Assembly (NCBI GenBank): GCA_018398815.1
Contig: JAFLJL010014739.1
Location: 1-64,000, forward strand
DNA: 64,000 nucleotides
Direction of reading: 5' to 3'
Source of the DNA: Conus ventricosus
Taxonomy: Eukaryota > Mollusca > Gastropoda > Neogastropoda > Conidae
The notes beneath the pieces are model-generated. The model was given only the letters and a program-made list of their open reading frames with translations, was not told the DNA's origin and did not search any database. Of the stretch, positions 1-49,239 are shown piece by piece. Each line of letters opens with the position of its first letter. Within the stretch, counting starts at the first letter, position 1. Position numbers and translations under genes: made by a program.

Positions 1-599
1 GATCTTTTCCGACCGGGACGTCAAGGAGTGAGGACATGCTTTTTAGCTCGCTGTTGTTCGAAACCGGTCTGGCCAAAAGAGGGCTTAAATCTTTTAGAAA
101 CCAAGCAACGAAAACGTGAAATGACAGTAAGTGAACTGGATGATTTTTTTACGTAATTGTTTTGTAGATAAACTTGATTATGAGCCGATTGATGAAGGTT
201 CTTTATTAAGCTGAAAAACATGGCTGAAATTACGCCTGCTTTACTGAAAGCCGGCTCTGAGATCAAAGCTGAAAATCGTAAAACACTTCGGCAATCTTTG
301 CTTTTAGGCCATTGGCTTGAAAGAACAAAAACTCTTTTCAAAAATCTAACCCAAAAGCGTCCTGGGATAATTATCTGAAAAACGAAATTTTGATGGAACC
401 CAAGCTGTGTAGAAAACTGATAGAATTATCATTTTTTTACTATCCAAAGTTTTATAAGCTTGGAATTTCTATCCACAGCTTGTATGAGAAAAGAAGGCTC
501 ATTTTAAAATATATGCAAAGCGACGTTGGCTTCTATGAGCTCTGGCAGGCTGGGTAGCTGCTGCGAAAAATCAATACTGGCCAAGGAACAGCCTAAAGG

Positions 600-815
600 C
601 TAAAATACTCCAGAACTGTGTCACTTCCCCACCGACCGCGGCGTCCTAGAAAGGCCCTCCACAGGGCTAAAAATATGCTAGAACTGTGTCGCTCGCTCAG
701 CAACCGCCGAGTCCTAGAAAGGCTCCCTACAGGACTAAAAATACTCCAGAACTGTGTCACTTGCCCACGACCGCCGCGTCCTAGAAAGGCCCTCAACAGG
801 GCTAAAAATAATACT
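600..815 (+). repeat. 67-bp tandem repeat inside left TIR
   Basis: Three units start at about 600, 667 and 735, with a partial fourth at 802. Each begins CTAAAAATA, carries AGAACTGTGTC and ends with CCTAGAAAGGC followed by a short palindrome of the type CCCTCCACAGGG. The same array is present in the right TIR. Confidence 0.9.
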
Positions 816-834
816 AAGGGAGGTAACTCCTGCA

Positions 835-965
835 CACACACCCCACCCCCCGCCCACTAACACGCCCCACCCACCCCCAACCCACACACACACCCCCACC
901 CCACGCACGCACACACACAACCCCACCCCCACGTGCCCCCACGCATGCACGTCCCACCCCCCTGC
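835..965 (+). repeat. C/A-rich tract of left TIR
   Basis: The tract is built from CACCCC and CACA words, about 130 bp here against about 180 bp in the right TIR, so the two ends have changed length independently. The G-rich complement could fold into G-quadruplexes (inference). Confidence 0.85.
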
Positions 966-970
966 CCACC

Positions 971-1880
971 ATGCCACAAAAAAAAACTAAGATTTGGCAC
1001 GCTCTTTACTTCAACACTATTAATAAATCAGAACAAAACGGGCCCTTTCCATTTTGGTTTTTAGTTAATTTTACATTAATAAATTTATAGGTCCAAAAAA
1101 ATTAATTCTTTAAATTCACTGTTTTTTTCCAATGAGTTAATTATAATCGAAAAACCCGCCTAGTTGAGGGCAAAACCTTTGAACTGTGATGGGTGCCATC
1201 AAAAAAAATTAGCTCTTTTTTTAAAACGTTGAAAATGAACTACAAAAATTTGTTTACGAGAAAAAAAAAGGGGTTTATTACCTTCAATTGTAAACATTTT
1301 CTTTTGTCTAAACTATAAGCTTCCCTCGTGTGGAAGCCAAAGATTTTAGCTAGGCCTCTGGGGGAAAGGTTTTTCTTTCTTTTTCTAGTGGAAAATGATA
1401 GCGATTCGAGGTTTGCCTGTTAATTCCAGAAGATGCCAAATTCGCTAAGTCCCCTTTTAAAAAACAAAATTTGTAAAAACCATAAGATTTGCATTTTATT
1501 TTTTGATTGTCCCCTCGTTACTAATTTTTTCCAGTTATTTTGACCCCCTTTCGTATCTAGCCCACAAAAATTTTAAAACCCAAATTTTCTTTAAGGGAAA
1601 TCCAAAACTCCCAGCCAATTGACCAATTGGGTACTTTAAAGAACACCGCCGTTTTGTTTGGTTTTTTATGTACATCCTTTTTTTAACTATTTTAAAAAAA
1701 AAATTTTAAAAAAAGGGAAACCCTTTTTAAATTAAGAAAAGTGCCCAACAATGTAGGGCTTTTTTATAACCCCAAATCTTTAGACTTCAGCAATCTAACC
1801 CATTGCAGTAGTGAATCATACGGCTTTCCGGGTTCGACTTGAAAAACCCGTAACTAATATTTAAATCCCCCAAATAAAGG
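971..1880. other. Noisy AT-rich stretch, no gene recognised
   Basis: This is the start of the degraded-looking part of the window, full of A and T runs. By position in the outer element a penton-like gene might be expected here, but no reading frame on either strand could be aligned convincingly to the clean penton-like gene at 32165-32845. Confidence 0.5.
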
Positions 1881-2843
1881 GTTGATAGGTGCGTCAGAAA
1901 GGGTCCCCGCCCTAGCGTTTTACCAGAATCAGTTAAATTTTGCCTTTACTGCACAACTCTGGCTGTGGTGTTTATTTGCAAAACCTTTTTAAAACCCCCC
2001 AAAATCTTTTAGAAAAGGCCCTATATCAACCTTTCGTTTATTACCTAACAGACGAATACAAAACTGAACAAAAGTAATCCTCCCAAACGAAAAACGCGTT
2101 TAATCCTTTTAAAAGCCCAATGGCAATAAGATATAAAAGAATCTGCAACGAATTTAACTTAATCCTTCAACTGACTTTAGACAAAAGTTAACCGCAATAG
2201 GGGTTAGGCACTTTTGTATTTGGGGGGTTAAAAAGAGAATATACTTTTGATACTCCCCGGCCCAACCCCCTTTTTTTAACCAGAAAAAACCATTTTCGAT
2301 TGGAATCCTAGAAAAAAAAACTCCTAATGCTGGGAAACTTTTATCTTAATGAAAGTGAAGGTTTAACAATGGGATTTTCCAAAGACTTAATGACCCATAC
2401 GGACATACTTTTGGGTTTCCCTATTGGAGCACAAGCGCAGACCAAGTCGCATATTTGACCAAATCTACGGGGTTTGACCCCAAAAAAACAATTTTAGCCA
2501 ATTTTAGAAGATGCTTTTAACTCTGTTTTTAAATTTTACCTGCCAGCATAAAAAGGTACAAAGTTTTTTGCACATGCTGGGTCAAAGGTTGACTTTGTTG
2601 AGGTCTGGTTTTTAAACAGCGCCCTGTTTTGACTGCAGAGGGCATATACAGAATTTTAAACAATGAAATCCTTATGCTGGAGACGACCAAAATTTGGGCA
2701 CAACAGGTTAAAACGGGGCCCACCCCATCCTTTAAAAAAAAGTACCAGCCTGAAAAAAGCGACCCATTAAAAAACACCCCCCAGCCAGAAACAGCCCAGA
2801 AAGCACCCCCACCTGCTGATCTACCTCACACTGACAGTCCCTA
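1880..2843 (+). pseudogene. Outer copy of fam-1 Polinton protein (noisy)
   Basis: This is the counterpart of the clean gene at 30940-32144, on the opposite strand. The reading YQNQLNFA near 1920, a GCGV-like word just after it, an FIL-x-x-SEGLT-like block near 2345, GAQAQTK near 2440 and a KKQF-x-x-NLEDA-like block near 2490 all line up with the clean copy in order. The last open part, 2629-2843, ends in a proline-rich tail that differs from the clean copy. The frame changes several times. Function is unknown; the family is recurrent in invertebrate Polintons (established knowledge) and is probably a virion component (inference). Confidence 0.65.
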
Positions 2844-2859
2844 GCGAAAGACAGCCCTC

Positions 2860-4060
2860 GTTTATTTTTAAATTTAAAAAGGTTAGCTATCTTTTTTCAC
2901 TAAAAAAAATCCAGCACTAGCATCCAAAACGTCCAGATGGTCGGCCATTAACCGGGCAATTTTGCCAAAAGTGAAAAAACCCCAACTAACAACACTCCCT
3001 TTATCCCAGGCAGAGCTAAAGCACTTTGGGGCTGTAACTTTTTTAAAAATTTGCTAATGATGAAATTTTTTTTTTAAAACCAACTTTTCCCGGGTGAGGC
3101 GTTGGGGCGTTAGGGCCCTGTTGGTCGCTACCGTTAAAGCATAAACGAGTTGAGTAGCAAACCCAAGGCCGTTAATATACTAACTATTGAAAACCCCCTG
3201 TTCTAAACAGGTCCTTATTCTTTCTGCCAGGGTGTTTTATAAATTTTCTGTTTATAGTTTCTCTGATTTGCTTGTTTTGATGCTAGCTGCGTCTGTTTAG
3301 ACAGAAACTTCTAACCGGGCCCCGCCCTTTGTAGCTTAAATCTTTTTTTTCTGCTGTATTCAGCCTTTTCTTCTCTCCAAAAAAGTTATCGTTGATCAGC
3401 CAGTTTTTTTTTTTTCTTTTTCTATCTCCCCCTTTAGTCCCCAAAGTTTTGCCAAATTGTTTGTTAATTACCCTTTTTGTCCGTAAAGTCTTAAAGCCCG
3501 GGATTTCCCCGCATAGGAATGGGAATCTTCAATTGTTTTTAACTGCGTCTCCTCATTAAAACTCGTCTCATTTCTGCTATTTGTTCATCTGTGTCGATTT
3601 AATTCTTAAAAGGGTATTTTTTTGTATTTCAGATTTTTTTGGCAACTTTTGCCCCAACCTGTAAAATAACAGCTTGACCTTAAATTGTCAATAAAGTTTA
3701 ATGCCTTTGGTCAATAATAGGGGATCTTTTAAAAATTGGGTGCTTAAAAAAGGGTTGGATCTGGTTTCATAAGTTTTTACACCTTTCCTTTGCGGTTTTA
3801 CATAAAAAAGATTATTTTCATCTGTTGAAAAATCAGAAACCCAAAAATGCTTCTGGTGCTCCCCCCCATAGGTAATAATGATTTCAATTTATCTAGCAAT
3901 CGTTTTTGACTTAAACCCTACCCCTTTGGGCCTGCTGCTGCTCCTTCGCTTTTTTGCAATGAAGGGCCCATTCTGTTTATCTTTTTCTTCACCAATAGGA
4001 TCAATTGGGGGAAAAACTTCACCCATTTTTTTTTATTTATATTTTTTTTGTTTTTTTAAA
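2860..4060 (-). pseudogene. Outer copy of fam-2 coiled-coil/membrane protein (noisy)
   Basis: Minus-strand frames align in order with the clean gene at 29761-30966. They show a block reading LTNNLAKLWGLKGEIEKEKK (clean copy LTNNLAKLGELDGHIKREKE), then a stretch matching the hydrophobic segment, then a K-rich amphipathic stretch followed by ALPGIKG and a final hydrophobic tail. Many frame changes. It is transcribed away from the capsid gene that follows, the same divergent pairing as in the inner Polinton, which supports both identifications. Confidence 0.65.
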
Positions 4061-4109
4061 AATGAACTCATACGGCTGTGACCTCGACCATACAAAAAAA
4101 GGAAGGACC

Positions 4110-5150
4110 CCCAGGGGTAAAAGGTTAAGGCAGCTGTTTTTAGTGTAAATATCCCAAAACAGTTGAGCCGGGACAAGATTTAAACGTCGGGTTCCCCGTC
4201 TGGCGCTGCGATGTTAAAATGCCAGGCACCGCTAAATTTTATTCAAAAAAGATATTACTCAGCAGATCCAAATGCTACTGTGTCGTATTTAGGCAGGGTA
4301 TCTTTTAATCTATAGTAATTAAACGGGAGGGTAAAGAAGTTTTTTTACAAAGCGAGGCAACATTTTTGCCCCTATTTGATCTTGGTACCAAAAAAAGAAA
4401 GAAAAGAGAAAGTTTATCGGGGAATACAAACCCCAAAACGGTCTCAAGCACAGGTTTTTAAAACGGGGAAGCAAAAATGATGTTAAAGATGAGGCAGTAA
4501 GAAGCATTTGGCAACAGTTCTGCCCCCTCTAATTTTGAGCTGTTAAAAGAGATTTTCCCATTTACCAGGTGCACAAAAAGAAAACTTACTTATCTTGACA
4601 TTTAACCTACGGCTCTGTTGTTCGTCGAAGACCCTTTGCTAAATACACGTTGTAAAATCCCCGGTTTTGAGTTGAAAAACCCCGGCGGGCCCAGAACAAT
4701 TTTAAACCCAGTATAAAAGTAAAACGGTTTTTTTTTAAAGAAACGTTTTGCACGCCATTAAGAAAATAAAAAACAAGCGAGCACTCTTTGGAAATCATCA
4801 ATCAGTCTCAAGTCTTAAAAGGAATTTTTTCTTTTTTTTAAAGAAGGAACAACTCCTTTTCAGAAAGAATCAAAGCTTTTTATAACCCAAAAAAAATTGG
4901 AAGGTTACTGGTAATAAATGGCAAGTTATCTTTGTATTCAGGGCGGGATTTTTTCCCTAAAAACACTTTGTTAAAAAGAAAGATTTTTTGTGGGGGGCCC
5001 CAAAAGGGACCCCTACAGTTGTGTGATGTAAAAAACTTCGCCTTTAGAGTAAGACTCGAAGATCTTAAAAACCCAAAATAGGGGCTTGGCGGGATTTTAG
5101 ATCCACATTAAAACAGTTTGTTTTGGAAGTGGAGAAAGGAAGGAAAAAGA
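4110..5150 (+). pseudogene. Outer major capsid protein (noisy, broken)
   Basis: It lies head-to-head with fam-2 as in the inner Polinton. Plus-strand words such as FLPLFDLW-like text near 4350-4380, EREKF near 4400, and NGLKHRF and NDVKDEAVRSIW near 4440-4510 correspond in order to the clean capsid gene at 28440-29724. The later part is hard to follow. In Polintons this protein is a double jelly-roll capsid subunit related to the hexon lineage (established knowledge). The assignment rests on order and short words, not on a continuous frame. Confidence 0.55.
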
Positions 5151-5289
5151 TGGTATCAAAAAATTTTTCAAAAAAAGAGACGGAAAAGGCCCCAATAAAA
5201 ATGCCATTTTTAGGGTTTTGTGTGCTCTTAAACATTAAAGAAAAAGGCTAAAAAAAGTGGCTTATTAAAATGTAGAAAAAATTTTCTAA

Positions 5290-5830
5290 TAAAAAACGAT
5301 GGTAGTTTAAAGTTTCTTCCTAAAGTCCCATTTTCCCTTATCTGGGGGGATTACGGGGTGGGGGAAAAAACTGTCTTCGTACTTGATTTGTTACAAACAA
5401 TATACAGGTTTCTTACGGAAATTTGTTATATTTGCCCCAAAGCCCAGTTTACAAAGAAAGGAAGTTTATTTGGACAGCGATAATAATTTTTAGTTGATGC
5501 ACGACAAACTGAACGACTTTTTAGAGCATTACTTGACTATTTGGGGAACTGAAACCCTGTTTATTATTGATGACTGTTCAGTGAACGGCATTGTTAAAAA
5601 AAAAAAAAAGCTCTGTAAAAGCTACCCTTTAGTGGGCGCCAGCCTTAGTTTTCTGTGTGGTTTTAACTCAAAAATACAAGCTGTCTTAAAAGTTTTAGAT
5701 CACATTTTAAAATCGGTTTTATTATTTTACACAAAGGGCAAAGTAGTTTTGAAGAATGTTTGGTGAAAATTTAAAATAAGGGACAAAGGAGTAACAAAAA
5801 TAAAAGAGCGTTAAAAAAATTAAAGCACCC
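5290..5830 (+). pseudogene. Outer packaging ATPase (noisy, partial)
   Basis: The 90-codon open stretch at 5494-5766 contains TLFIIDDCS, a Walker B strand identical in spacing to LIIDDCSAEKR in the clean ATPase at 33740-34386. Upstream, near 5340-5390, a degraded G-x-x-G-x-GK block sits at the Walker A position, followed by a VFVLDLLQ-like strand near 5385. The gene belongs to the FtsK/HerA-A32 packaging ATPases, which pump DNA into capsids in Polintons and related viruses. Walker A is not intact as read, either through noise or decay. It is followed by fam-3, whereas in the inner Polinton fam-3 precedes the ATPase. Confidence 0.7.
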
Positions 5831-5940
5831 GCATGCTAGCGGATCCCCCCCCATTTTCAATATGTTTGTTTATTGTAAATTGTTTTTTATTGATTGCTTA
5901 TAACAATTTATTTTTTTTAATTTTTTATTTTATAAAAAGA

Positions 5941-6120
5941 ATGCCCGGGGGGGCCAAATCAAAAGCGGAGTTAGCTCCAAAATGCGTTTGAGTGAGCTAA
6001 AAGCCCTGAACCATGAGTTTGCAAATAGTAGTGCCGGAAATTTTTATGGATTTAAATACCCGTTGGGGTTTAAAAACGAACAGAAATTGAAGCAAAAAAA
6101 CGACACTGCTCCTCCCATTT
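5941..6120 (+). pseudogene. Outer fam-3 protein, 5' part (cut by Gypsy-1)
   Basis: An ATG at 5941 opens a frame that, with one shift, aligns with the start of the clean fam-3 gene at 32867. NFYGFKYPLGFKNEQKL near 6030-6090 matches ALYGFEYTKDGDYKRK. The similarity stops at about 6115, where the Gypsy-1 LTR begins. The missing remainder of the same family resumes at 35001, just after the other LTR. The two parts are complementary in content, which is the main evidence that they are halves of one interrupted gene. Confidence 0.7.
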
Positions 6121-6305
6121 GCTCCTGACTTGTGGGGGGTCTTCTTGGCCTGGGCGCTTCTTAGTTCCCCTCTCCGCCCCTGGTTTGTCTGCGTACTCGG
6201 TCGACGTTGGGCCCCCCAAAAAGCCCGGGCGGAAGTCCGGATTTGGTCGTTGATTGGGCGTTCCCCCGATATGGAAATCGGCTTGACTCGAGTCCGTACT
6301 TATCA
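6116..6305 (-). repeat. Gypsy-1 3' LTR (left)
   Basis: It matches 34789-35000 along its length, for example TTTGTCTGCGTACTCGG and GAGTCCGTACTTATCA at the end. About 20 bases are missing relative to the clean LTR, mostly in the noisy start. Open frames across it on both strands are spurious. Confidence 0.75.
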
Positions 6306-6316
6306 TCTCCCCCTTC
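6306..6316 (-). promoter_or_regulatory. Gypsy-1 polypurine tract
   Basis: Read on the minus strand the 11 bases are GAAGGGGGAGA, ending exactly where the LTR begins with TGATAAGT. This is the expected position of the plus-strand primer of an LTR retrotransposon and fixes the orientation of Gypsy-1. Confidence 0.75.
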
Positions 6317-6359
6317 GTTCAAAACTGAGTACTGGTTTATTGCTACGAAGCGGCTTTTC

Positions 6360-9300
6360 CCCATAAAAAATTCGCACTGATGTCTTTCAGAGTTTTAAAG
6401 ATTCTGCCTGGTGCCATGATAAATAATTCATGAACCCATAAATGTTCTGCAACCAAATGCCCCTTTACAAAAAATGGCTTGTGACTTGTTGTCAAAATTG
6501 TTAACAGGGTTTTCTCTACCTGTGAGTTCTTGGCTCTCACTTTTTGGACCCCTTTCCCCGCTTCTATTTACATTTGGATTGGTACCCCAAAAAATGTTCT
6601 GAAACCAAATGGGTCCCCACCTGTTTTCCCTGGTATTTTTATAAATTGACTTCTCCCCGGGTTTTTTTTTCCCCGGGTGGTCTTTAAATGTTGGAGGAGA
6701 ATGATCTTTCTGAGTCAATTTTCTCTATGTCCCCCCGACTTGGGATTTTCTGTTGATTCGGAAGCTGGCTGCTTTTCGCTGTTCCGATCCTCTGACTGGA
6801 TTGTGGGCCCTTTTTTCTTGCTTGTCCTGTTGCTTCCTTTTCTGACGCTTTGGTAAGATTTGGGGTTCTGGTTGTTTTTCTAATGGTGCTTCCGGCGTGG
6901 ATAAGAATTTTTTTCTGGTTTTTTCTGTTGCGTGCATTTCGTTAAGCAATGTTTTTTTTCGGTTTCGCCCTTGTTTGCTAGTTTGAAATGGTGCATCTCT
7001 GTGGGTCTTTTTATTGTCGAAAATTCCTCCTGGCTCTTTGTGGATCCGCTGTCGGACAACCACATGAATGAGGTTCATACGCTGTTGTTAGTTTGGTTTG
7101 CTTCATCTGTTTACCAAAAACATGATCCCCGATGATAAAGTGTTTTCGGGGGCATTGGTGTCTGGTTTTTCTTCTTTTTCAGCTTGTACGGGAGACCCTT
7201 GTCGCAATGTGCTCTGTATTCTGTTTTTTTTCTGTTTTGGCAAAATTGTGTCGTAACCCACTTTTGTCCTCCCCTCTGTTCATAAAGGGCCCCTATAAGG
7301 ATTTGTCTGTGTGCTGGGTGTGCTGTCGACCTGTAACCTTCTTTTTCTGGATTGAAATTTCGAGTTCTCCTTTTTTAAAGTGTGCAATTGTAGTTTTATT
7401 CGGGTTTTTTTCATGAAGCTTTCAGCCCCTCCTTTTGCTCTCGGGTGTGCGGGTGTTACTCTATGGGTTTTTTTCCCAAATTTTTCCGTGAATCTTGGAA
7501 CTCTGCTGAAGAATGGGGCCCTTTTTCCCGTCCGATTTTTTGGGGTTGCCTGGTTGCCTTTATCTTCACTGGTTTGATGATTGTTTGATCGTTGAGTATA
7601 CGCGTTCATTCCGCATTTTGGGTTCTTTTATCTATTAGACCAAGTTGAAGGGCCGTTGCATAGGTCCGCCAAAGTCCGGAGAGTGTGTCCCATGGTTGCT
7701 CTGGTTTGGGTTTCCCCTTTGAGGGTTTTGGTTTGTCTGCTTTGTGGGATTGGGCACTCGAGAAAATTCCCCTACAGTGCTTTTATCTTGATTCATTTTG
7801 GGAACCATACTTCCCCCGCATCATTTTTTCATTTTGGTCATTCCGGGTGCCAAAGCTGTGCCCTGATTAATGCTTTCTTCTGCAATCCTCTTGGAATCAC
7901 AATCTGTGTAGTCTGAAAATCATCCTTCTGCATAAAAAGGTCATCTTTGATTGATAAAAAAGGTTGTATGTCTGGATCTCTTCTAGGGATCTCCCGTCAC
8001 CTTTGAAATTTCGTTCTTTTACTTGCGGGGGGGCACTTTGGGTTTGTTTTGATCTGTCCCACGATTGGGGTCTGACTGGATATTGTTTTGATAGCTGCTT
8101 CTGCTGAATCTGTCTCTTCGCTATCTGTTGTCTTGGTAGTGGATGTTGGATAGAAATCCAAGGGACTGCTGCGTCTTTGCCGGGCTCATAAACTATGTCA
8201 TATTTTAGTTTTGAAAGCTCAAAACCCCATTCTCTTTCTTGCTTTTTACTTGGGTGGGCTTGCTGAAAAAAGGGAAAATTAGTGGTTTGTGGGATGTGAT
8301 GATCTTAAACCCGGTGCTCCCAGAAGTAAACCCCCAATCTTTTTCTTTGCCATCGACTCCCCAAACGCCCTTTTTTCTTTTTTGGTGTTCTTGCCCGGGT
8401 TCTGTGATGATCTGCGTAAATGACGGTTGTACCCCCATTTCTGTCCCCTGGAACGTCCCCCCTGATAAACCTTCATGGAAGCTGCTTCACATCTCAAGAT
8501 GATGGTCTTCTGGGATCAAAAAACCCTTGTATGTCATTTTTTAAAGCCTTTTTCATCTTTAAATGTTTCCCTCTTGTTCTTTTCCCCATGGAGGTTGTGT
8601 TTTTGGCGTCATTTTCCCTCGGGGCTCTGTCAAATGTTATTTTGGGAAATAAACTTTGATAGGTCCCTGCCCTTCCCCAAAAAAAGCCGCACGGCGTTTT
8701 TGCTCTCTGGTGCTGGCATTCTTTCTGCTCTAACTTTCTGGAGAGGGTTTGACCCATCATTCGTGAATCTTATCCAAAGAAAAAATTTTCTTTGACTCCG
8801 AAGGCATTTTGGGTTGAACTCCCCCCGTATTCGGCTGCTCTCTGTAATCCCTGTTCGAGCGTTCTGTCTTTGCTCTTCGCGTTCTTCCCCCCGATGAGGA
8901 TGTCATCTCTCTGGTTCAGGCAGTGGGGAAATACCCCCAAAATATCTTGACGACGTTTCATCGAATACGTCTTGTGACGTTGGCTCCGAAGTTTTTCCTT
9001 TTGGGTCTTTTTTCCCCCGGGTGTGCTGAAGTTGCAACAGTTTTAAAACTTCGCATTTCCCCATTTGGGTTATACCCTTGATTCATACCCAAACTTGGAA
9101 AAGATCTTGCAATCATAAAAATTTGTGTGTAAAGTCTTCCACATCGGAGCGGTGTACCTGTACCTTTCCATGCTGCTTTTTTTGGAACCGAAGGCCCACA
9201 TTTGCTTGATCATTGTCCCCCTATCTTCTTCTTGGGGGATCTTGTGCTTTGGCTTCAGCGGGCCCCACCAGGGTGAGCACCAGGTGATTGGCTCATCCTT

Positions 9301-9700
9301 GGGACTCTCTCAAATATCCTTTTTTATACATTGTCCACCATTCCTTCGGGTTCTTGTAGGAATAGGGAACGTTTGGCTTCTGGGCCTGGACAGTGTTTTT
9401 TTCATGGAATTAGTTTGGGACCCTTTGATCTTCCCTACTCCTTGAAACACTGTCTTGTGTTTTCTAGTAAAATCAGTTCTAGAAGTGTGTCTTTTTGTTT
9501 TTGGCTCTTAGGTTCCTTAATAACCATTGGTCAAATTTTTAAAACAGCCTAGCTTCTCTAGGTCCTTTGCTTAGAGAGGAGGTGAATGAATTTTTTATCA
9601 AGACTATGAATTTTTCTGCCCCCTTGGTAGCTTTTTGACTGTGGCGTAAAATTCCCCTTTTACAGGTAAAATTATTTGACAGGTCTTCAATGTCACTGGT
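6360..9700 (-). pseudogene. Gypsy-1 pol remnants (RT, RNase H, integrase)
   Basis: Minus-strand frames show the Ty3/Gypsy order. A reverse transcriptase catalytic block QRDDILIGG lies at 8887-8913, followed by a block resembling the RT thumb (AGTYQSLFPK) near 8670. RNase H-like text around 8200-8450 includes a FKIITSHKPL-type segment near 8260-8300. An integrase catalytic-core end, PAHPRAKGGAESFM with the glutamate, lies at 7412-7453. Frames shift every 50-100 codons, matching the poor base quality. The far end (7078-6360) is a basic, proline/lysine-rich integrase tail. Because errors are dense, it cannot be said whether the element was functional when inserted. Confidence 0.7.
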
Positions 9701-39074: not shown

Positions 39075-39300
39075 GTAATAGTTTTTAAGAACTAAATAAA
39101 GTACAAGTTAAGAACTAAATACGTACAAGTTAAGTGAGTTATAGAAAGTACTTTTTAAGTTAAGTGCAAGTAAATTGCAAGTTAAGTACAAAAATTATAA
39201 GTTCTTAAGTAAGTACTAGTTAGGTTCCTAAGTTAAGTTCTTGTTATGTTCTTAAGTAAGTACAAGTTAAGTTCTTAAGTTAAGTTCAAGTCAAGTTAGT
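39075..39300 (+). repeat. Degenerate AAGTTAAGTTC repeat (outer)
   Basis: Some 20 variants of TTAAGTTC, GTACAAGTTAAG and TTCTTAAG fill the space between the convergent ends of fam-5 and polymerase B. It is related in sequence and position (after fam-5) to 12560-12665 and 21465-21570. Confidence 0.8.
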
Positions 39301-39304
39301 CAAG

Positions 39305-39703: not shown

Positions 39704-39708
39704 GTACC
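39704..39708 (+). repeat. Target-site duplication of Gypsy-2, left
   Basis: GTACC, repeated at 44458-44462 on the other side of the element. Confidence 0.9.
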
Positions 39709-39881
39709 TGTCACATATGCATGTTAGAATTGTATCCCTTGATTATTATTTATCTGAATGATGATTGGTTGCGGGGACTCTACTAGGATGGCAACTTAAC
39801 CGTGGTTGTAATAAAACTACTATCGAACTCAACATTGATTTATTTCCATATAAAGATGAATGATGGAAAGTAAACACAACA
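39709..39881 (+). repeat. Gypsy-2 5' LTR
   Basis: Begins TGTCACATATGCATG and ends CACAACA. Differs from the 3' LTR only at GCAACTTAACC versus GCAACGTAACC. Near-identity means a recent insertion, since LTRs are identical when inserted. Confidence 0.95.
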
Positions 39882-39896
39882 TGGTGTCAGAGACGG
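39882..39896 (+). promoter_or_regulatory. Gypsy-2 primer binding site
   Basis: TGGTGTCAGAGACGG starts directly at the LTR boundary. The TGG start fits pairing with a tRNA CCA end. The tRNA is not identified. Confidence 0.75.
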
Positions 39897-40028
39897 GATC
39901 CAGTAACGAGATCGAACAGCTTTAAAACAGCAAAACAACGCTTCAAATCAAATTTGAGGTAAACACTGATCGAAGTTACGGATGCTGTTGGTTGCCAAGG
40001 TGAACTTTAAAACAAACGATCGTCAACG

Positions 40029-40897
40029 ATGTCGAGCGAAGAAGACCATCGAGCAAGACCTTCTACAAGCGAGTCTAGAAGGCGAAAGACCTCATGCAAC
40101 GTTCCTCCACCATCAAAATTGACTTTGAACAACCACAGTGGATCAGCAATCACTGAATGGAAACGCTTCAAAAGATCGTGGAAGAACTTTGAAATTGCTT
40201 CAAGACTGCAGCAAGAAACGCCGCAATACAGATGTGCCGTGTTCCTGTCCTGCAATCGGAGAAGAAGCAGCGGAACTCGTCGATGGATTTTCGTTCACTG
40301 CTGAGGAAAATGACGACGACATTAACATTGTCATGAAAAAATTGAAGACTTTTTCATAGGTGAAACCAACGAAGTCTACGAAGCCTACCTGTTCAACAAA
40401 GAATACAGGACAGTTCAGAAAGCATTGAAGTGTACATCGCTGAACTGAGAAAACTTGCCAAAACTTGCAACTTTGGTAACTTAGAAAACAGAATGATTAG
40501 AGACAAAATAGTTGTGGGTGTGAATGATGATGTTGTTAGACAAAAATTACTTGAGGTAAAAGATCTAAAATTGGAAAAATGCATTGAAATTTGCAGAGCA
40601 CATGAAAGTTCCAAATCACAAGTGCAAAAAATGACAACATCAGATGAAAAAATTCACAAAATAAAATCCCATAAACACAAAGTTAGTCATAAAAATGCAA
40701 AAGGAAAAAAGCATCATGAAAAAACTGATGAAAAAGATGAGAAAGAAAGTCAATGCACAAGATGTGGATATACACATTCTAAAGGAAAATGTCCTGCATT
40801 TGGTAAAAAATGTACATTGTGTTCAAAATACAATCATTTCAAGCAATGCTGTAAAGTAAAAAGAAAAAAGTACACAGCATGCATGATGACAGGTTAA
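40029..40897 (+). pseudogene. Gypsy-2 gag (broken)
   Basis: The frame from ATG 40029 (MSSEEDHRARPSTSESRRRK) contains a WKRFKRSWKNFEIASRL capsid-type helix. Frame changes fall near 40236, 40355 and 40425. The last open part, 40430-40897, has a capsid C-terminal region (KLAKTCNFGNLENRMIRDKI), a lysine-rich linker and two zinc knuckles: CTRCGYTHSKGKC (one residue short of the usual CX2CX4HX4C spacing) and CTLCSKYNHFKQCC. Gag forms the particle of the retrotransposon. Confidence 0.85.
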
Positions 40898-40914
40898 ACA
40901 CTGATACAGAATCT

Positions 40915-43900
40915 GATTTTGACACAGATTCAGAGAGTGAAGTCAGTGTAGGTGTGGTAAATAAACCCAAAGCAAAAATAGAAGGGAAGAATTGTTTGTC
41001 ACTGCAGATGTTCAAACCAAAGTATCAAATTTAAAATTGACACTGGTGCTCAAGCAAACATCTTGCCATTGCAGACATACAAAAAGTTTGACACAAAACC
41101 TGCAATGAAAAAGACCAAAACAAACTGACTAGCTACACAGGTGAGACATTGAAAACTGTTGGTACTTGTAAACTTTCTGTGATGGACAAAGAGCTGAAAT
41201 TTTTTGTTGTAAATACAAATCAATCAGGACTCATAGGTCTTGAATCAATTGAAGAATTAAACATAATTCAAATCTTGAGTGTAGATGCTGAAACAGTCTA
41301 CACAGATTTTCCTGAATTATTTCAAGAATTAGGGTGTCTCAGTCAGCCACATCACATTGAGTTGGACCCAACAGTAAAACCTGTCATACAGCCACCAAGA
41401 AAAATCCCCTTTGCACTGAGAGGTAGAATCAAGGAAGAACTTGACAGAATGGAAAAACTAGTGTTATTGAAAAACAAGAAGGACCAACAGATTGGGTCAG
41501 TAGCATGGTGGTTGTAGAAAAACCAGACAAGACTTTGAGGATTTGCATGGATCCCAAAGATCTTACAAAGCTATAAAAACAGAGCATTTTGCCATGCCAA
41601 CAGTTGAAGAAGTTACAGCACAATTAGATGGAGCTGAATTTTTCACAAAACTGGATGCTCAAAGTGGATTCTGGCAAATACCGCTAGATGAGGAAAGCTC
41701 AAAATTATGCTGCATGCAGACACCATTGGCAGATGTATTTTTAAAAGATTACCAATGGGTCTGGCTAGTTCGAGTGAAGTATTCCACAAACAAATCAAAC
41801 AGTTGTTCAGTGACATTCCAAGAGTTGATAACTGGATTGGTGACATTCTTGTATCAGGACGCACACAAAAAGAACATGATGATGCACTGACAGCAACTCT
41901 AAACAGAGCACAAGAGAGCAACCTCACTCTAAAGAAAAAGAAATGTGAATTTTCACAAAAGAGATCAAATACATTGGTCACATCATAAGCAAAGAAGGCA
42001 TCAAACCAGATCCACAAAAGATTGAAGCAATAAAAAACATACCTTCACCCAAAAGCAAAAAAGATCTGCAAAGATACTTGGGAATGATCAACTATCTTGG
42101 AAAATTTTTTCCACAGATGGCTGATTACACTGCACCAATGCGTACACTTTTGCAGAAAAAAGTAGACTGGCAATGGAATCAAGAGTAGGAGGAAGCATTT
42201 CAGAAAACAAAGGACATGTTAACAAAAGCTCCCATTCTAGCTCATTACAATCCAAACAAACCAGTAAAAATCACTACAGATGCTTCTTCAATTGGGCTTG
42301 GGTGTGCATTACTACAAAATGAAAAACCAGTTGCATATGCTTCCAGAGCACTCACAGAAACAGAACAAAAATATGCCCAAATTGAGAAGGAAACACTTGC
42401 AATTGTTTTTGCATGTGAAAAATTCCATCAGTATATATATGGCAAACAATGCAAGTGGAAACAGATCACAAACCAATTGAAAACATCTGGAGAAAAACAC
42501 TAAACAAATGCCCACCGAGAATACAAAGACTTATGTTGAGACTGCAAAGATATGATTTGGACATCACATACAAACCTGGAAAGAAATGTATGTTGCAGAC
42601 ACATTATCAAGAGCAACGGCAACAGAGTCACAGTCTCACACAATGAAGTCAGAAGAAGAAGAAATTCTCAGAATTCACGTAAACACACTTCTAGAAAATC
42701 TTAAAGTTAAAGATTATAAACTAGAAGAAATGAAAAGAGAAACAGACAAAGATAGTGAACTAGTTCTACTCAAAGAACAAATACAAAAAGGATGGCCTGC
42801 AAACAAGAACAATGTACCCAATGAGATCAGACAATACTTTCAGTACAATGAAGAACTCAGTATTATTAATGATCTTATTTTCAAGGCAAACAGAATTGTA
42901 ATCCCAAATCAATGCAATCAGAAATGCTTGAAAGGATTCATGAAGGTCATCTAGGAATTGAAAAATGTAAAAACAGGGCAAGGAGACTCATGTTTTGGCC
43001 AGGCATGAATGGACAAATTGAAGACACAGTAACATCATGTGCAACATGCACAAAATACAAAAACAACCAACAAAAAGAACCATTACTGAGTCATGAAATA
43101 CCTGAAAAGCCATGGCAGAAAGTTGGAACAGATTTGTTCACATGGGAAAAACATGATTATTTGCTTGTCGCAGACTATCATTCAAAATTCATAGAATTTG
43201 CACTACTACCAGACACAAAAAGTAAAACTGTGATCACATACATGAAATCCATTTTCAGTAGACATGGCATACCAGAAGAAGTAATTTCTGACAATGGTCC
43301 ACAATATGTCAGTGAGGAATTTTCCAAGTTTGCACAAAAATGGGAATTCAAACACACTACATCCAGTCCCAGATATCCACAGTCTAATGATTTGCAGAAA
43401 GAATGGTACAAACACTCAAAAAGTTATTACAGAAAGCAAGGGACAGCAATCAGGACGTGTACTTAGCAGTATTGAACTACGGACCACACCAATCAATAGC
43501 AAACTTCCATCTCCAGCAGAAATACTCATGAACAGAACACTTAAAACAAGACAATGTTTCCAACAAAGAATTTTAAAAAGAAGAATTCTCATCAAGTCAG
43601 AAAGGAACTAAAAGAAAAACAAAAGAAGCAGAAACACTATTATGACAAAGGAGCAAAAGCGTTGTCTAAACTCAAACCAGATGACAAAGTCTATGTAAAT
43701 GACAAAGATGTGTGGAAACCAGCAAAGGTTATAAAACCAGCAAACACACAAAGATCATATTATGTTCAAACGGAAACAGGCACACTGAGGAGAAACAGAA
43801 GAGATTTGATGAAAGTGAAAGAAAACAAAAGTACAAATACTGACAGAATTAAACAAAGCACAAGTACAAATCCAAACAGAAAACAAACAAATCCTGACAA

Positions 43901-44126
43901 ACAGTACATTTACCAAGAAGAAAGTGAGAGTGAATATGACACTGACACAAACAGTAAGACGACTAAAGAAAACAATAAAACAAGGAAACAAACACATGAT
44001 GCCAAACAAACAAACAAAACAAGTAAACAAAAAGGCACTTCAGAAACAGAAGTGTCTGAACACACTACAACAAGGAGTGGTAGAATTGTGAGAATGCCTG
44101 AAAGAATGAATGAATATTTTCTTTGA
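40915..44126 (+). pseudogene. Gypsy-2 pol (protease, RT, RNase H, integrase; broken)
   Basis: Protease has the KIDTGAQANILP active site near 41035. RT shows FFTKLDAQSGFWQIPLDE (41635-41690) and, at the catalytic site near 41830-41850, NWIGDILVSG where [FY]xDD is expected. RNase H has KITTDASSIGLGCALL (42265-42315). Integrase has an HHCC finger ending SCATCTKYK (43025-43060), VGTDLFTW (first Asp) and ISDNGPQYVSEEF (second Asp, near 43290). A charged, Thr/Lys-rich tail runs to 44126. Eight or more frame changes and an in-frame stop near 42186 break it. With LTRs almost identical, some breaks may be sequencing errors. The RT substitution is a clear base call rather than an indel. Confidence 0.9.
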
Positions 44127-44272
44127 AATGTTATATGTTAAATTCTGTTCATAAAGTTAAAATTATTTGTTCCAGATTATTTTAAATGTCAATGAAACAT
44201 TAGTAATATAGTAAGATGAAAGAAAGAAGAACACACATGGAAATAATAATAATAATAATCTTGCATCAAGCT

Positions 44273-44284
44273 GAAGAAGGGAGA
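44273..44284 (+). promoter_or_regulatory. Gypsy-2 polypurine tract
   Basis: GAAGAAGGGAGA ends immediately before the 3' LTR; expected plus-strand primer. Confidence 0.85.
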
Positions 44285-44457
44285 TGTCACATATGCATGT
44301 TAGAATTGTATCCCTTGATTATTATTTATCTGAATGATGATTGGTTGCGGGGACTCTACTAGGATGGCAACGTAACCGTGGTTGTAATAAAACTACTATC
44401 GAACTCAACATTGATTTATTTCCATATAAAGATGAATGATGGAAAGTAAACACAACA
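44285..44457 (+). repeat. Gypsy-2 3' LTR
   Basis: 173 bp, one difference from the 5' LTR, followed by the GTACC duplication. Confidence 0.95.
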
Positions 44458-44462
44458 GTACC
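44458..44462 (+). repeat. Target-site duplication of Gypsy-2, right
   Basis: GTACC, matching 39704-39708. The empty-site sequence in unit A has a single GTACC at 15847-15851. Confidence 0.9.
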
Positions 44463-47406
44463 ATCCATCAGCCCTTTAGCCACTTCCGTTTCTAAATCCT
44501 TATAGAAGTCTTCTGTGGGGACGTCTAGAATAAAACTATCAGTGTCTGTGTAAAGGACTCTTGCTTCTGGTACAGTGGTTTAAAGTAGTCGTACAGAAAT
44601 TCTAACATTAATAACTTTGACAACTCTAATACAGTAAAGCCGATAAACACTGGCTTGTCCAACTTAACATCCTTTTTCTTCATCATAATGCCAACCAGGC
44701 TGTCGTTAAATCTTCTAAAGTCTTGATAGTTGGGTTTAGAGGCAAACTTAATTGCTTGGTTTTCTTTTGTAACTAATTTAACATCTTTGCGATTGTGTAT
44801 GTTCTCCATGGTTTTGCCAAACAGCTGTTGTTCATCAGTTTAAAGAAGTTTTTTCTGAAGCGTCAGTGGCTTGGGTTCAAAGATCAGTGTTCTTCTTGAT
44901 GTATGGCCTCATAAAAGGCTCTTGGTCACAGACAATGATTCTGTGAACAGCTGTCAGTTTCAGCCCGTGTCTTAAGTAAAACTGTAACAGTCTGTAATGA
45001 CAAACATAATTAGTTTTGTGCCTAAGATTAGGCACGAGTTTAGGCGGTTCGATAGGACTCATCTTTAATCTTTCTGCGGCTAGGGGGTAATCGTTGTGGA
45101 GATCGTGTAATTCTTTAGGATATTCTAAGTCTACTTCCAAGATTAGTCCTGCTGGATTATCAGGCGTAAGCTGTGACAACATACCTAACACAGTGTTAAC
45201 ATCATGAGGACCTTTTATCATTTTAAAGTTTCTTAGCGGAAGCGGTTGACTCATGGCCTATCCATACAAATTGTTAGCATCTAAGTACATTAGATAGTTG
45301 GATGGTTTTGGGTGGGGTCATAATCGTCTAAATATTTGTTGTTGGCTTTGCAGTAAGGATGTGAGGCCATGCTAATACCTCCCCTCAGCCCGTCTTCAAT
45401 CATCTGAAGTGTGGGCAGATCAGAAATTAAGTCAATCTGGATGTTTGTAGACTTTAAGAAGGCGTCCCAAGAAAGTCCGGCGCAGAGATGTAATGTGACG
45501 AGTCTAAGTTGTAATGTTTCATGCATGTAATCTGTAATTCTGAAAAACGTCTGCCAATAAACACACGTCAGCCAATAAATATTGATCGTGATAATCCCCA
45601 TCGTTTCACAGTTAATTCTGTCCAGGCTTTCTGTGCGTATTCATAGTCAGAGTCTGTTTATCCCTTTGCCTCTAAGACTAGAAAAGAAAGCGCCTTTAGG
45701 TGGAGTGAGTCTTCATCAAACCTATCCCACGAGTTCATGTATTCATAAGGATAAACTCCTTTACGCACTAAAGATGGATCAAAGTATTTTTAGTGATTGG
45801 AAAGTCTTGTAGAGATCCCGCTAACTTATCTAAACTAGCCATCAGATGTTGGGCAGAGTCTAAAAGGATAAAGAGTCAAGAGTAAACGTCATGTACTTTT
45901 CTGAAGACTGTGCAATGCAGGTAACCCTCTTATATTCAGAAGTCACTGCTTGCATAAATAAAATGAGAATCGTAGCCTCGTAGGTTATGAAAGAAGATAG
46001 GCAGTTTCCATGTCTTAGGGTCAACCTTAAGCTGAAGATTACAATTGTTGTGCGCAGCCCTCTAAACTTTTCAGTAATGTGATCGTGGCCCTCTTACTGC
46101 GTTGCCTAATATTCTCTGTTACATACCCAACAGCACGTAGATGAGTCATAGCGTTCTTGCTCTTCAGGAGTCATAACAATGTCTGAAAGATTTAGTTCAT
46201 TGGATAACTGATTGCGAAGTTGTTTCATCTGCTCTAAAAATCTGCTGGCTGCATTGGGACCTCTGTAAATCTCGGGTGTCGTGTGTTGACCGTCTGACCT
46301 AACAACAATGAAAGCATAAGAACAGATCTGATGGTGGGTTAATAAGGTGTTTTTTTGTTCTTGCTGTTGCGGGCATAGTACTGCGGTAAGAGCGATTCAA
46401 AGTCAGCATAAACCACGTACGGACTCATCTGCATTTTGTGTACATTCTTAAAACTAACCTTAGACCCAGGCTTAGGGGTAAGGAAGTTTGGTTTCACAGT
46501 CTACAAAACTTTTACAATGTTTCTTATGGCTGGCTGCTGCTTCTATAGTAGGGATTCTGACCAAACATCTTCTACAAAGCTCTTTTTTAGCATGATTCTT
46601 TGATGTAAACCCATAAGTCTGCTTATTGTTCTGATTAATACATAATGACTCTTTGTACTATCTGCAAACAGTATCAAGTCTACATGTTTGTTAAGTGACT
46701 CGCCTAAAGTAGGGGCGTTGGAGAAACCCTTTGAGGCACTAGATCGACTTCTACAGACCATGTGTATACGTTTACGGTGATTGGTTTGTTTTGCTCTTCA
46801 ACTGAGATATACTGTTTTATACTTACTGGAAAGGTTATGTTATCAAAGTTCAGGCTATCTTTGTATTGTTCATAATTAAAATACTCTGTTTGCATGATTT
46901 TGACAGGATTTAAATGTGCTAAAACACACCACATAAAACACATGTTGTCAGAATTATGTATGTTTAAGACTGCTCGTTTTAACTCTAACTCGTTTGGGAG
47001 AGGAAGGTAAGAATTGCCAACTATAGGATAGAACTTTGTTTGTCTCAATTGATTTCAAGGACTGTCCCTTCAGACCAGCCAGAACCCCCTTTAACTTTGC
47101 CTCCTCACTTGCATGGTTAAACTGTGTAAGCATGTAGTCAGCCCAGTTAGAATTAAAGTCGTGATAGCTGATTACTTCTTTCTGTTTAGTTGAAACCCAG
47201 ACTTCCATGTTAGTATCATCAGGCGTTTTTATAATCAATCAGAACGGCCAATAGCACTTTTACTGGCGGTTCCATCTGAAGAAACTCTGGGATTTTAGCG
47301 ACAGCATGTGCCACGCTTTCCTGAACATTTGTAGGGCTAATGATGTCCATGCTACTTCACTAAACGTATTGCTTAATTGTTTGTCACTATCAAATATTTC
47401 TTCCAT
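44463..47406 (-). pseudogene. Polinton DNA polymerase B, N-terminal and catalytic part (outer)
   Basis: Start at 47406 (MEEIFDSDKQLSNTFSEVAW). Along the gene: EVWVSTKQKEVISYHDFNSN, DNMCFMWCVLAHLNPVKIMQ, exonuclease motif VVYADFESLL near 46410, GVYPYEYMNSWDRFDEDSLH (45700-45760), exonuclease III-like block DYHDQYLLADVCLLADVF near 45555-45610, palm motif A YLDANNLYGWAMSQ-like text near 45260, EVDLEYPKELHDLHNDYPLA and HGLKLTAVHRIIVCDQEPFM, a KTMENIHNRKDV-type motif B near 44800, and motif C YTDTDSFIL near 44540-44565. The coding part without Gypsy-2 is about 3.35 kb, usual for the family. At least seven frame changes. It replicates Polinton DNA by protein priming. Confidence 0.9.
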
Positions 47407-47561
47407 CGTATATAGTTTTTCTGTCCTCGAATTTACTTGTGGTCGTCATTTTTAAAGCCACAATATTTACGTAGATTAAAAAAATAAATGTATATAAAAG
47501 TAAGTAAAACACGCTTTTTATTCTTCACCCAAGTGCCGCAACACTTCAAGACACGTTAACC

Positions 47562-47779
47562 TCACAATAAACCCGCCAATATTTTAGCTTTTTCTGAATC
47601 ACTACAGTCAATGTTTATCACTTTGATTGCTTCATTAAATAGTTCACTATGATCTTTTATTATATTGTCTATATCATTCTCAAAACCAAATTCGCTAAAA
47701 TCAATGTTTAATAATTTCATTGTTTCGTCAAATAGTTCATTACAATTCTTAAATCAGATTCACTGAGTTCGGCAGCCAT
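47562..47779 (-). pseudogene. Small acidic ORF between polymerase B and TIR
   Basis: Start MAAELSESDLRIV at 47779, with a frame change near 47735. It then shows LFDETMKLLNIDFSEFGFEN and a helical acidic stretch (IIKDHSELFNEAIKVINIDC) ending LAGLL with a stop at 47562-47564. About 72 codons. An ATG preceded by an A-rich context and an end shortly before the polymerase support it. No homologue recognised. It repeats a MxAEL start seen in the next small ORF. Confidence 0.45.
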
Positions 47780-47815
47780 TTTTAATATAAAATAAATAAA
47801 AAATTAATTGTAAAT

Positions 47816-48144
47816 TCAGCTGTTATTCATAGTCTTTTCTAATCGTAAACCCTGATCTTTATTAAAGCGAATAGCTACTCCTTCAGGGCTGGTAGAAACA
47901 GTCAGATTAACATCTTCAGGAGCTATATTTTTCAACTAAAATAGCAAACAACTTTACAACTGGTTGAGGCCAATTATCTGGTATTTTACTGATAGCTTCC
48001 AATACATCTTCTCGCATGTCTATACGATTAAAAAGATCAGTAATTAATTCTTCAAACCTGTTTTTAACTGATCTTTATCAGCTTCTCTCTCCCAATCCAA
48101 CTCGTAAGTATATTAATAAGCTCTGTAGCTAATTCGGCCTTCAT
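47816..48144 (-). pseudogene. Small ORF next to right TIR
   Basis: Start MKAELATELINILTSWIGRE at 48144. Frame changes near 48068 and 47935 connect RIDMREDVLEAISKIPDNWP, then APEDVNLTVSTSPEGVAIRF, ending KTMNNS at 47816-47818. About 108 codons. The composition looks like a real protein: amphipathic N-terminal helices and a strand-rich C-terminus. Function not recognised. It is the first gene inside the right TIR, on the polymerase strand. Confidence 0.5.
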
Positions 48145-48240
48145 TTTTTAAACCAGATTAAAATCATAAATTAAAAAAATTTAAATTTAAACAGTTTCTC
48201 TTGTTTTTGTGCAAAATTAGAAAAAGTTATATGTGTGTGC

Positions 48241-48420
48241 GTGAGTGGCAGGGGGGTGGGACGTGCATGCGTTGGGTGGGGGTGGGGGGGGGGTGTGCAT
48301 GCGTTGGGTGGGGTGGGGGTGGGGGTGTGTGTAAGGTGGGGTGGGGTGGGGGTGTGCATGCGTTGGGTGGGGGTGGGTGTGGGCGTGTTAGTGGGCGGGG
48401 GATGGGGTGTGTGTGCAGGA
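48241..48420 (-). repeat. G-rich tract of right TIR
   Basis: GGGTGGGGGTGG words with GCATGCGTTGGGTGG repeats, about 50 bp longer than the left copy. It has quadruplex-forming composition on the plus strand. Confidence 0.85.
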
Positions 48421-48440
48421 GTTACCTCCCTTAGTATTAT

Positions 48441-48650
48441 TTTTAGCCCTGTTGAGGGCCTTTCTAGGATGCGGCGGTTCGGTGGGCAAGTGGACACAGT
48501 TCTGGAGTATTTTTAGTCCTGTAGGGAGCCTTTCAGGACTCGGCGGTCGCTGGCGAGCGACACAGTTCTAGCATATTTTAGCCCTGTGGAGGGCCTTTCT
48601 AGGACGTGGTGGTCGGTGGGCAAGTGACACAGTTCTGGATATTTTTAGCC
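48441..48650 (-). repeat. 67-bp tandem repeat inside right TIR
   Basis: Three units with GACACAGTTCT, GGGCCTTTCTAGGA and TTTTTAGCCCTGT, mirror of 600-815. Confidence 0.9.
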
Positions 48651-49239
48651 TTTAGGGTGTTCCTTGGCAGTATTGATTTTTCGCAGCAGCTACCCAGCCT
48701 GCCAGAACTCACGGAAGCCAACGTCGCTTTGCATATATTTTAAAATGAGCCTTCTTTTCTCATACAAGCTGTGGATAGAAATTCCAAGCTTATAAAACTT
48801 TGGATAGTAAAAAAATGATAATTCTATCAGTTTTCTACACAGCTTGGGTTTCATCAAAATTTTGTTTTTCAGATAATTATCCCAGGACGCTTTTGGGTTA
48901 GATTTTTGAAAAGAGTTTTTGTTCTTTCAAGCCATGGCCTAAAAGCAAAGATTGCCGAAGTGTTTTACGATTTTCAGCTTTGATCTCAGAGCCGGCTTTC
49001 AGTAAAGCAGGCGTAATTTCAGCCATGTTTTTCAGCTTAATAAAGAACCTTCATCAATCGGCTCATAATCAAGTTTATCTACAAAACAATTACGTAAAAA
49101 ATCATCCAGTTCACTTACTGTCATTTCACGTTTTCGTTGCTTGGTTTCTAAAAGATTTAAGCCCTCTTTTGGCCAGACCGGAACAACAGCGAGCTAAAAA
49201 GCATGTCCTCACTCCTTGACGTCCCGGTCGGAAAAGATC

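What the first reader, a model, noticed from the sequence alone, without database searches (positions are those of the whole stretch)
1..49239. Nested composite: Polinton containing a Gypsy element containing a second Polinton
The outer TIRs enclose 49 kb, yet the outer Polinton genes account for only about 15.6 kb, at the two sides. Between them lie Gypsy-1 LTRs, and inside these a second Polinton with a different gene order. If real, a virus-like element was hit by a retrotransposon that was later hit by another virus-like element. The unusual size then has a simple layered explanation.
Basis: partly seen in the sequence, partly recalled or inferred. Interest (0 to 1): 0.85.

Follow-up and report, generated by a model that had tools for sequence, protein, structure and literature searches.

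The report
Polinton inside retrotransposon inside Polinton
A large block of jumping DNA in what looks like a mollusc genome is a real three-layer stack: one virus-like element was hit by a retrotransposon, which was then hit by a second virus-like element; part of its unusual length is probably an assembly error.

Summary
The layered reading holds, with corrections. Other copies in the same genome show both empty sites. (1) In two relatives of the outer Polinton the interrupted gene has no insertion: the window's two flanks lie 2 bp and 15 bp apart. (2) In 17 of 18 other copies of the retrotransposon the gag site hit by the inner Polinton is unbroken, with one TCGGTT (TCAGTT in one copy) where the composite has two. 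A second contig, C726, carries the inner left junction and what lies right of it, and gives the inner Polinton an 86-column inverted repeat and about 16.0 kb; it does not reach the outer-left junction. Corrections: window base 1 is the contig start. The outer repeat runs to 49709, not 49239. Bases ~1.1-27.2 kb are homopolymer-smeared. There, about 9 kb of the inner Polinton appear twice; C726 has them once, and the readable differences are mostly smear errors, so this duplication is probably an artefact. A second Gypsy element (39709-44457, GTACC duplication) sits in the outer Polinton. Nesting of retrotransposons and Polinton-like elements is already described: a good new instance of a known kind.

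The parts
1..970 (.). Outer Polinton (A), visible part of left TIR; its outer ~470 bp are beyond the contig start
   Evidence: Inverted match to 48275-49239, 94.4%; window start = contig start; 98% to the right TIR over its outer part, the next best copies from other loci 91%
1917..6125 (.). Outer Polinton, left gene block: capsid-side module (1917-3629), MCP (about 4023-4581), packaging ATPase (about 5278-5895), N-terminal half of gene X (about 5950-6125); mostly poor sequence
   Evidence: Self-matches to the inner Polinton; 3877-6116 colinear with the relatives C165 and C14
6126..6305 (-). Gypsy-1 3' LTR (outer ~17 bp not readable), followed by a purine tract (PPT, read by eye) at 6306-6317
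   Evidence: 82-84% to 34804-35000; 10 of 10 substitutions copy a neighbouring base, 6.0 expected
6306..10684 (-). Gypsy-1 internal region (pol and most of gag), poor sequence; ends at the inner insertion site
   Evidence: The piece 9201-10689 matches 17 of 18 other Gypsy-1 copies; the match stops at 10684 in 16 and at 10680 in one; overall similarity to Gypsy-2
10685..34479 (.). Inner Polinton (B); about 16.03 kb in C726 (589-16619, with a poor patch inside), longer here because of the duplication
   Evidence: TIRs and target duplication read in C726
10810..19441 (.). First copy of the ~9-kb stretch of B (poor sequence)
   Evidence: C726 holds one copy only
19449..28470 (.). Second copy of the ~9-kb stretch of B (poor to about 27.2 kb, clean after)
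28721..29745 (-). Inner Polinton MCP gene, broken frame
   Evidence: DNA match to the MCP region of the C165 and C14 relatives; fold of the family
32864..33752 (+). Inner Polinton gene X (the gene that is interrupted in A), frame broken after 33346
   Evidence: P0121, 62% over 99% of the query 32864-33343
33716..34371 (+). Inner Polinton packaging ATPase
   Evidence: Pox_A32, E 5.6e-5 for 34063-34299
34395..34480 (-). Right TIR of the inner Polinton (86 columns); its mate is C726 589-672, degraded in the window from 10685
   Evidence: Score 140 against a maximum of 28 in 200 shuffles
34480..34485 (.). Target duplication TCGGTT (right copy); the left copy reads TGGTT at 10680-10684 in the poor sequence and TCGGTT at C726 583-588
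34486..34788 (-). Gypsy-1 start of gag, leader and primer-binding site
   Evidence: Present in other Gypsy-1 copies; the primer tRNA is recalled
34789..35000 (-). Gypsy-1 5' LTR, 212 bp, TGATAAGT...ACTTATCA
35001..48274 (.). Outer Polinton, right gene block: C-terminal half of gene X, INT (36452-37276, -), PolB-like gene (about 39.3-47.4 kb, -, broken)
   Evidence: rve E 7.5e-11; 92.5-93.1% to C165 and C14 over 35000-38124
39709..44457 (+). Gypsy-2, an LTR retrotransposon in the PolB-like gene of A; LTRs of 173 bp, TSD GTACC
   Evidence: LTRs 99.4%; TSD; RT, RNase H, integrase domains
48275..49709 (.). Right TIR of the outer Polinton, true extent; ends ...TTTACATTCTCT

Best explanation
A nested composite made by four insertions. 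Polinton A inserted in the host first. A Ty3/Gypsy-type element, Gypsy-1, then inserted in A's gene X. Polinton B then inserted near the seventh codon of Gypsy-1's gag (codon read by eye) by the usual integrase route and made a 5-6 bp target duplication (TCGGTT; CGGTT if the TIR is read as AG...CT). Gypsy-2 inserted separately in A's PolB-like gene (GTACC duplication); its order relative to Gypsy-1 and B is not known. Shown: the layers, their order and the inner target duplication. Inferred: that each insertion used its own family's integrase. The ~9-kb direct duplication inside B is most likely an assembly artefact of the poor stretch (about 0.75). The composite is then an ordinary transposon graveyard: gene X of A and gag of Gypsy-1 are both cut, and the PolB-like gene of A is cut and frameshifted.
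For: Outer level: in C165 (L035) window 3938-6116 and 35000-37955 are 2 bp apart, in C14 (L036) 3877-6105 and 35000-38124 are 15 bp apart, with gene X matching across the join although its frame is not perfect in either. Inner level: the C726 gag piece that ends in TCGGTT and the window piece that starts with TCGGTT overlap by exactly 6 bp in 17 of 18 other Gypsy-1 copies; these 17 show at least 13 different flanks. B has an 86-column TIR and about 16.03 kb. Second contig: C726 is colinear from window 10132 rightwards, 96.6-99.8% per 500 bp over C726 13501-30000, where both are clean. TIR pair of A: 98% to each other over the outer part, 91% for the next best copies from other loci.
Against: The left half (1 to 10.1 kb) was seen on one contig only, mostly in poor sequence; C726 begins at window 10132, and my searches for another contig there did not complete. 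Gypsy-1's target duplication in gene X is not found: right flank GAAGA, left flank GCTCC in poor sequence, and about 17 bp of the 3' LTR end are missing. A's own target duplication lies off the contig. C726 and C9227 may be two assemblies of the same reads and so not fully independent. Five of the 17 uninterrupted Gypsy-1 copies share or nearly share a flank and may be duplicates. PolB got no Pfam match on its pieces.
Confidence: 0.93

Rival explanations
1. The left half is an assembly chimera: a read of another Polinton-A copy was joined to this locus through the Gypsy-1 repeat, so A's two halves are not one element.
For: About 1.1-27.2 kb is smeared sequence next to a contig end; the TIR family has 1346 first-look candidates and Gypsy-1 46; C726 does not reach this part; no target duplication of Gypsy-1 is readable.
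Against: The left half ends where the right half begins when laid on uninterrupted relatives; the left TIR is 98% like the right one and the next best copies from other loci are 91%; the left piece carries a 3' LTR and PPT and the right one a 5' LTR and PBS, as one insertion should (LTRs; PPT and PBS by eye).
Confidence: 0.05
2. The ~9-kb duplication inside B is real and specific to one haplotype, a recent tandem duplication.
For: It is in the contig as assembled, and the copies are head to tail without a gap.
Against: C726 has one copy. Where one copy is clean, 49 of 54 substitutions copy a neighbouring base against 27.7 expected and codon positions are hit 11/13/9; where both are poor the excess is smaller, 244 of 478 against 176. 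Of 67 substitutions shared by both copies against C726, 66 are of that type. The seam, all of the first copy and most of the second lie in the poor stretch; the second copy starts in a simple-repeat stretch at B's left end.
Confidence: 0.2
3. Not nested: A and B are parts of one rearranged Polinton or a recombinant of two.
For: A and B share genes at about 58-69% DNA identity in different order.
Against: B has its own TIRs and target duplication inside Gypsy-1, and both empty sites exist elsewhere.
Confidence: 0.01

Closest known systems
Mavirus-like virophages (EMALEs) with Ngaro retrotransposons in Cafeteria burkhardae (Hackl et al. 2021, PMC8547959; passages seen)
   Same: Retrotransposons inserted in virus-like elements, and one EMALE03 with two Ngaro1 insertions that itself lies inside an Ngaro4: the same kind of layering.
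   Different: Protist host, tyrosine-recombinase retrotransposons, virophages; here probably a mollusc host, Gypsy elements, Polintons, and the outermost layer is also a Polinton.
Polinton-like viruses of cryptophytes with nested retrotransposon-like elements (PMC12220804; passages seen)
   Same: RT-bearing elements with direct repeats nested in Polinton-like viruses, some inside genes.
   Different: Protist hosts; in the passages seen no further Polinton inside the retrotransposon is described.
Vertebrate Mavericks/Polintons (PMC8097293; passages seen)
   Same: 12.7-24.6 kb, TIRs of 46-1447 bp, 6-bp target duplications; A and B fit the sizes.
   Different: The end motifs given there are (AGT)2 and (AG)3; A and B start AGAGAA, close to but not (AG)3. 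Gene order differs between A and B; I did not compare it in detail with the vertebrate order.

Membership tests
Polinton/Maverick | rve-type integrase | tested here: met
   A: window 36452-37276, rve E 7.5e-11, 932 proteins at E 0.001 or less among 1450 candidates. B: DNA match to A's INT region, 60-68%.
Polinton/Maverick | Double-jelly-roll major capsid protein | tested here: met
   ORF of the A relative C165 (L035:366-1334) found 765 proteins among 2216 candidates; model of the homologue P0124, pLDDT 86, matches PBCV-1 MCP (best E 7.5e-16, TM about 0.5-0.6), Sputnik and mavirus MCP. The MCPs of A and B are linked to it by DNA match only; no window protein was modelled.
Polinton/Maverick | A32-type packaging ATPase | tested here: met
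   B: Pox_A32 E 5.6e-5, 23.2 bits against a cut-off of 22.8. A relative C165: E 3.1e-14. A's own poor pieces: no match.
Polinton/Maverick | Protein-primed DNA polymerase B | tested here: inconclusive
   Pieces of A's gene and of C14's gave no polymerase match in Pfam or PHROGs. Motifs such as YTDTDS are read by eye, family recalled.
Polinton/Maverick | Maturation protease | not tested
   No protease was looked for.
Polinton/Maverick | Terminal inverted repeats | tested here: met
   A: 970 bp visible on the left, about 1.43 kb on the right. B: 86 columns.
Polinton/Maverick | 5-6 bp target duplication | tested here: met
   B: TCGGTT. A: not testable, left end off the contig. Of three A relatives whose two flanks were both printed, C4784 shows AATGG on both sides, C165 four of five bases, C14 none (read by eye).
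Ty3/Gypsy (Gypsy-1) | LTRs with TG...CA ends | tested here: met
   212 bp, full length in 19 of 19 loci examined.
Ty3/Gypsy (Gypsy-1) | RT, RNase H, integrase in Gypsy order | tested here: inconclusive
   Poor sequence; three pieces gave no such Pfam match. DNA similarity to Gypsy-2, score 793 against a maximum of 642.5 in 10 shuffles.
Ty3/Gypsy (Gypsy-1) | 4-6 bp target duplication | tested here: inconclusive
   GAAGA on the clean right side; left side GCTCC in poor sequence.
Ty3/Gypsy (Gypsy-2) | RT - RNase H - integrase order, LTRs, target duplication | tested here: met
   RVT_1, RT_RNaseH, Integrase_H2C2 and rve in that order on +; LTRs 99.4%; GTACC.

The most novel reading that the evidence does not exclude
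The duplication inside the inner Polinton is real: one haplotype carries a fresh ~9-kb head-to-tail amplification of the polymerase and integrase half of an integrated Polinton, inside a retrotransposon inside another Polinton, so such stacks would still be growing by unequal exchange.
Probability: 0.15. Interest if true: 0.4.

Novelty: new member of a known kind. Interest (0 to 1): 0.3.

Why it matters
It is a clear three-layer stack with both empty sites present in the same genome, so the order of arrival of two Polinton lineages can be read directly. It also warns that very large 'Polintons' in draft genomes may owe part of their length to assembly errors. The kind of nesting itself is known.

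Tried and rejected
My first candidate for the inner target duplication, CAAAAA at 10658-10663 / 34428-34433, was wrong: in C726 the true site lies elsewhere and the sequence at 34395-34480 is B's TIR. I also first thought that B had no TIR; the left one is degraded in the window. A supposed unique 334-bp spacer between the two copies vanished on better alignment. My reading that the outer TIR ends at 49239 was dropped. An earlier count said 18 of 20 loci end at 49709; the correct count is 15 of 17 other loci. Scans of viral contigs with the A integrase, a B capsid piece and an integrase alignment found no relative; genome contigs gave one short locus (L001), not used. PolB pieces in Pfam, PHROGs and PDB sequences gave no polymerase match. 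A first comparison script looked for the wrong files and compared nothing (redone). Own-genome searches for further copies of B, for another contig over the outer-left junction and for the duplication seam were asked many times and never answered (last tries), nor was a request for another Gypsy-1 copy.
Full report
What was claimed. A 49-kb Polinton whose middle is a Gypsy element that in turn contains a second Polinton. I tested presence, junctions, and whether the assembly can be trusted.

Anatomy. A self-comparison gives the outer inverted repeats 1-970 / 48275-49239 (94.4%), a pair of direct repeats 39709-39881 / 44285-44457 (99.4%), a head-to-tail pair 11046-19441 / 19775-28470 (77.8%), and matches at 58-64% between 1.9-5.9 kb and 29.2-34.4 kb and between 13.2-28.4 kb and 35.7-47.5 kb, several of them inverted. 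So two Polinton gene sets lie in the window: A (1-6125 and 35001-49709) and B (between). Domains: rve integrase in A (36452-37276, E 7.5e-11) and Pox_A32 ATPase in B (34063-34299, E 5.6e-5); RT, RNase H, H2C2 and rve in the element 39709-44457.

Sequence quality. The share of bases in homopolymers of 4 or more is 0.16-0.48 per 500 bp from 1001 to 27000, 0.14 at 27001-27500, and 0.00-0.22 from 27501 on, mostly 0.05-0.17; finer steps put the borders near 1.1 and 27.2 kb. Compared with clean partners, substitutions there copy a neighbouring base: 49 of 54 (27.7 expected) between the two copies where one is clean, and 10 of 10 (6.0 expected) between the LTRs, whereas the TIR pair shows 1 of 5 (2.0 expected) in its outer and 7 of 22 (7.3 expected) in its inner part; where both copies are poor it is 244 of 478 (176 expected). 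Codon positions are hit evenly, 11/13/9. This looks like damage by sequencing or consensus, not decay. C726 has such a patch of its own at 7.0-13.0 kb.

The window's place. The genome search, when it answered, put the window at bases 1-64000 of contig C9227 of a 3.52-Gb, 12,740-contig assembly; the contig is 95,573 bases long. The left end of A is therefore cut by the contig start. Names in the homologue lists (Elysia marginata, P0085, and Thiodiazotropha records; Mactra antiquata, P0195) suggest a mollusc; this is inference.

The true outer end. The right TIR has 1346 first-look candidates, 40 of them scored, 44 matches listed. Loci were returned for 20 of these; leaving out the window itself, C726 and the left TIR, similarity ends at 49709-49715 in 15 of 17 (49638 and 49690 in the others). 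Copies share (T)TTACATTCTCT or close variants at that point with unrelated DNA after it. A thus ends at 49709, and its TIR is about 1.43 kb.

A second contig of the locus. C726 (49,149 bp) matches the window from 10132 rightwards in the same order: C726 5-613 = 10132-10705, 800-10387 = the second copy of the duplicated stretch, 10001-45999 = 28122-63819; 96.6-99.8% per 500 bp over C726 13501-30000. It has one copy of the duplicated stretch.

Inner junctions. In C726 the gag of Gypsy-1 runs to TCGGTT (583-588) and B starts at 589 with AGAGAACAGC; B ends at 16619 and TCGGTT follows. B's ends are inverted repeats of 86 columns, score 140 against a maximum of 28 in 200 shuffles. In 17 of 18 other Gypsy-1 copies for which loci were returned (one search lists 46 candidates, 40 scored) the two flanks meet in one TCGGTT (TCAGTT in one); in the eighteenth (L058) the left flank was not found. 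Five of the 17 share or nearly share a flank beyond the LTR and may be duplicates, which leaves at least 13 distinct sites. The window's degraded gag piece also stops at 10684 in 16 of these 18 copies, at 10680 in one, and has no match in one. Whether the duplication is 6 bp, or 5 bp with a perfect AG...CT TIR, cannot be decided, because the base is shared.

Outer junctions. In two relatives of A, C165 and C14, window 3938-6116 / 35000-37955 and 3877-6105 / 35000-38124 are 2 and 15 bp apart, at 78-80% on the poor side and 92.5-93.1% on the clean side. Gene X matches across that point, though its frame is not perfect in either relative; the full-length homologue P0121 shows the same order. The right flank is GAAGA; the left flank lies in poor sequence and shows no repeat of it, and about 17 bp of the LTR end are missing. 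That is a result against a clean Gypsy-1 duplication, though the poor sequence could account for it.

The duplication. The alignment runs from 10810/19449 to 19441/28470. Against C726, 5595 sites: substitutions 9.0% and 7.0%, 525 and 318 deletions; of 67 substitutions shared by both copies 66 are of the neighbour type. So I see no clear real difference between the copies. With one copy in C726 and the seam in poor sequence, I take it as an artefact (about 0.75), not proved.

Gypsy-2. GTACC on both sides in the window and in C726.

Membership. The MCP family was tested on an unbroken ORF of the C165 relative: 765 proteins at E 0.001 or less, a 30-row alignment taken from the 120 listed, a model of P0124 with pLDDT 86, best PDB matches PBCV-1 and SGIV capsid proteins, with Sputnik and mavirus lower in the list, 109 matches at E 0.001 or less in BFVD. 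PolB is inconclusive.

Literature. Six searches and passages of four papers. Hackl et al. 2021 describe an EMALE with two Ngaro1 insertions that lies inside an Ngaro4, and PMC12220804 describes retrotransposons nested in Polinton-like viruses. I saw no Polinton-in-Gypsy-in-Polinton in an animal in those listings and passages; I read no whole paper.

Verdict. The layered reading is right, the length is probably overstated, the kind is known.

Noticed in passing
window 1100-27200; C726 7000-13000 (L030, L031): Homopolymer-smeared stretches, an assembly-quality problem that makes genes look broken and repeats look old.
   Followed up: yes
window 49459-49727: The outer end of the A-type TIR is itself an imperfect inverted repeat of about 240-270 bp, 72% identity.
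   Followed up: partly
window 58376-59572 and 61204-63012, both -: A Tc1-like transposase ORF (DDE_3, E 1.7e-18) and an ORF with weak SCAN and retrotransposon-gag matches in the right flank.
   Followed up: no
window 321-557 and 48690-48926: A 78-codon open frame kept almost unchanged in both TIR copies of A; not identified.
   Followed up: no
window 12330-12560, 21250-21450, 832-970, 48250-48390: C-rich (or G-rich) low-complexity tracts near the inner end of A's TIR and roughly 2 kb inside B's left end.
   Followed up: partly
G000:C165, C14, C4784, C12, C251, C2018: Inverted TIR pairs of the A family, 9.5 to 33 kb apart: a large family with variable content.
   Followed up: no
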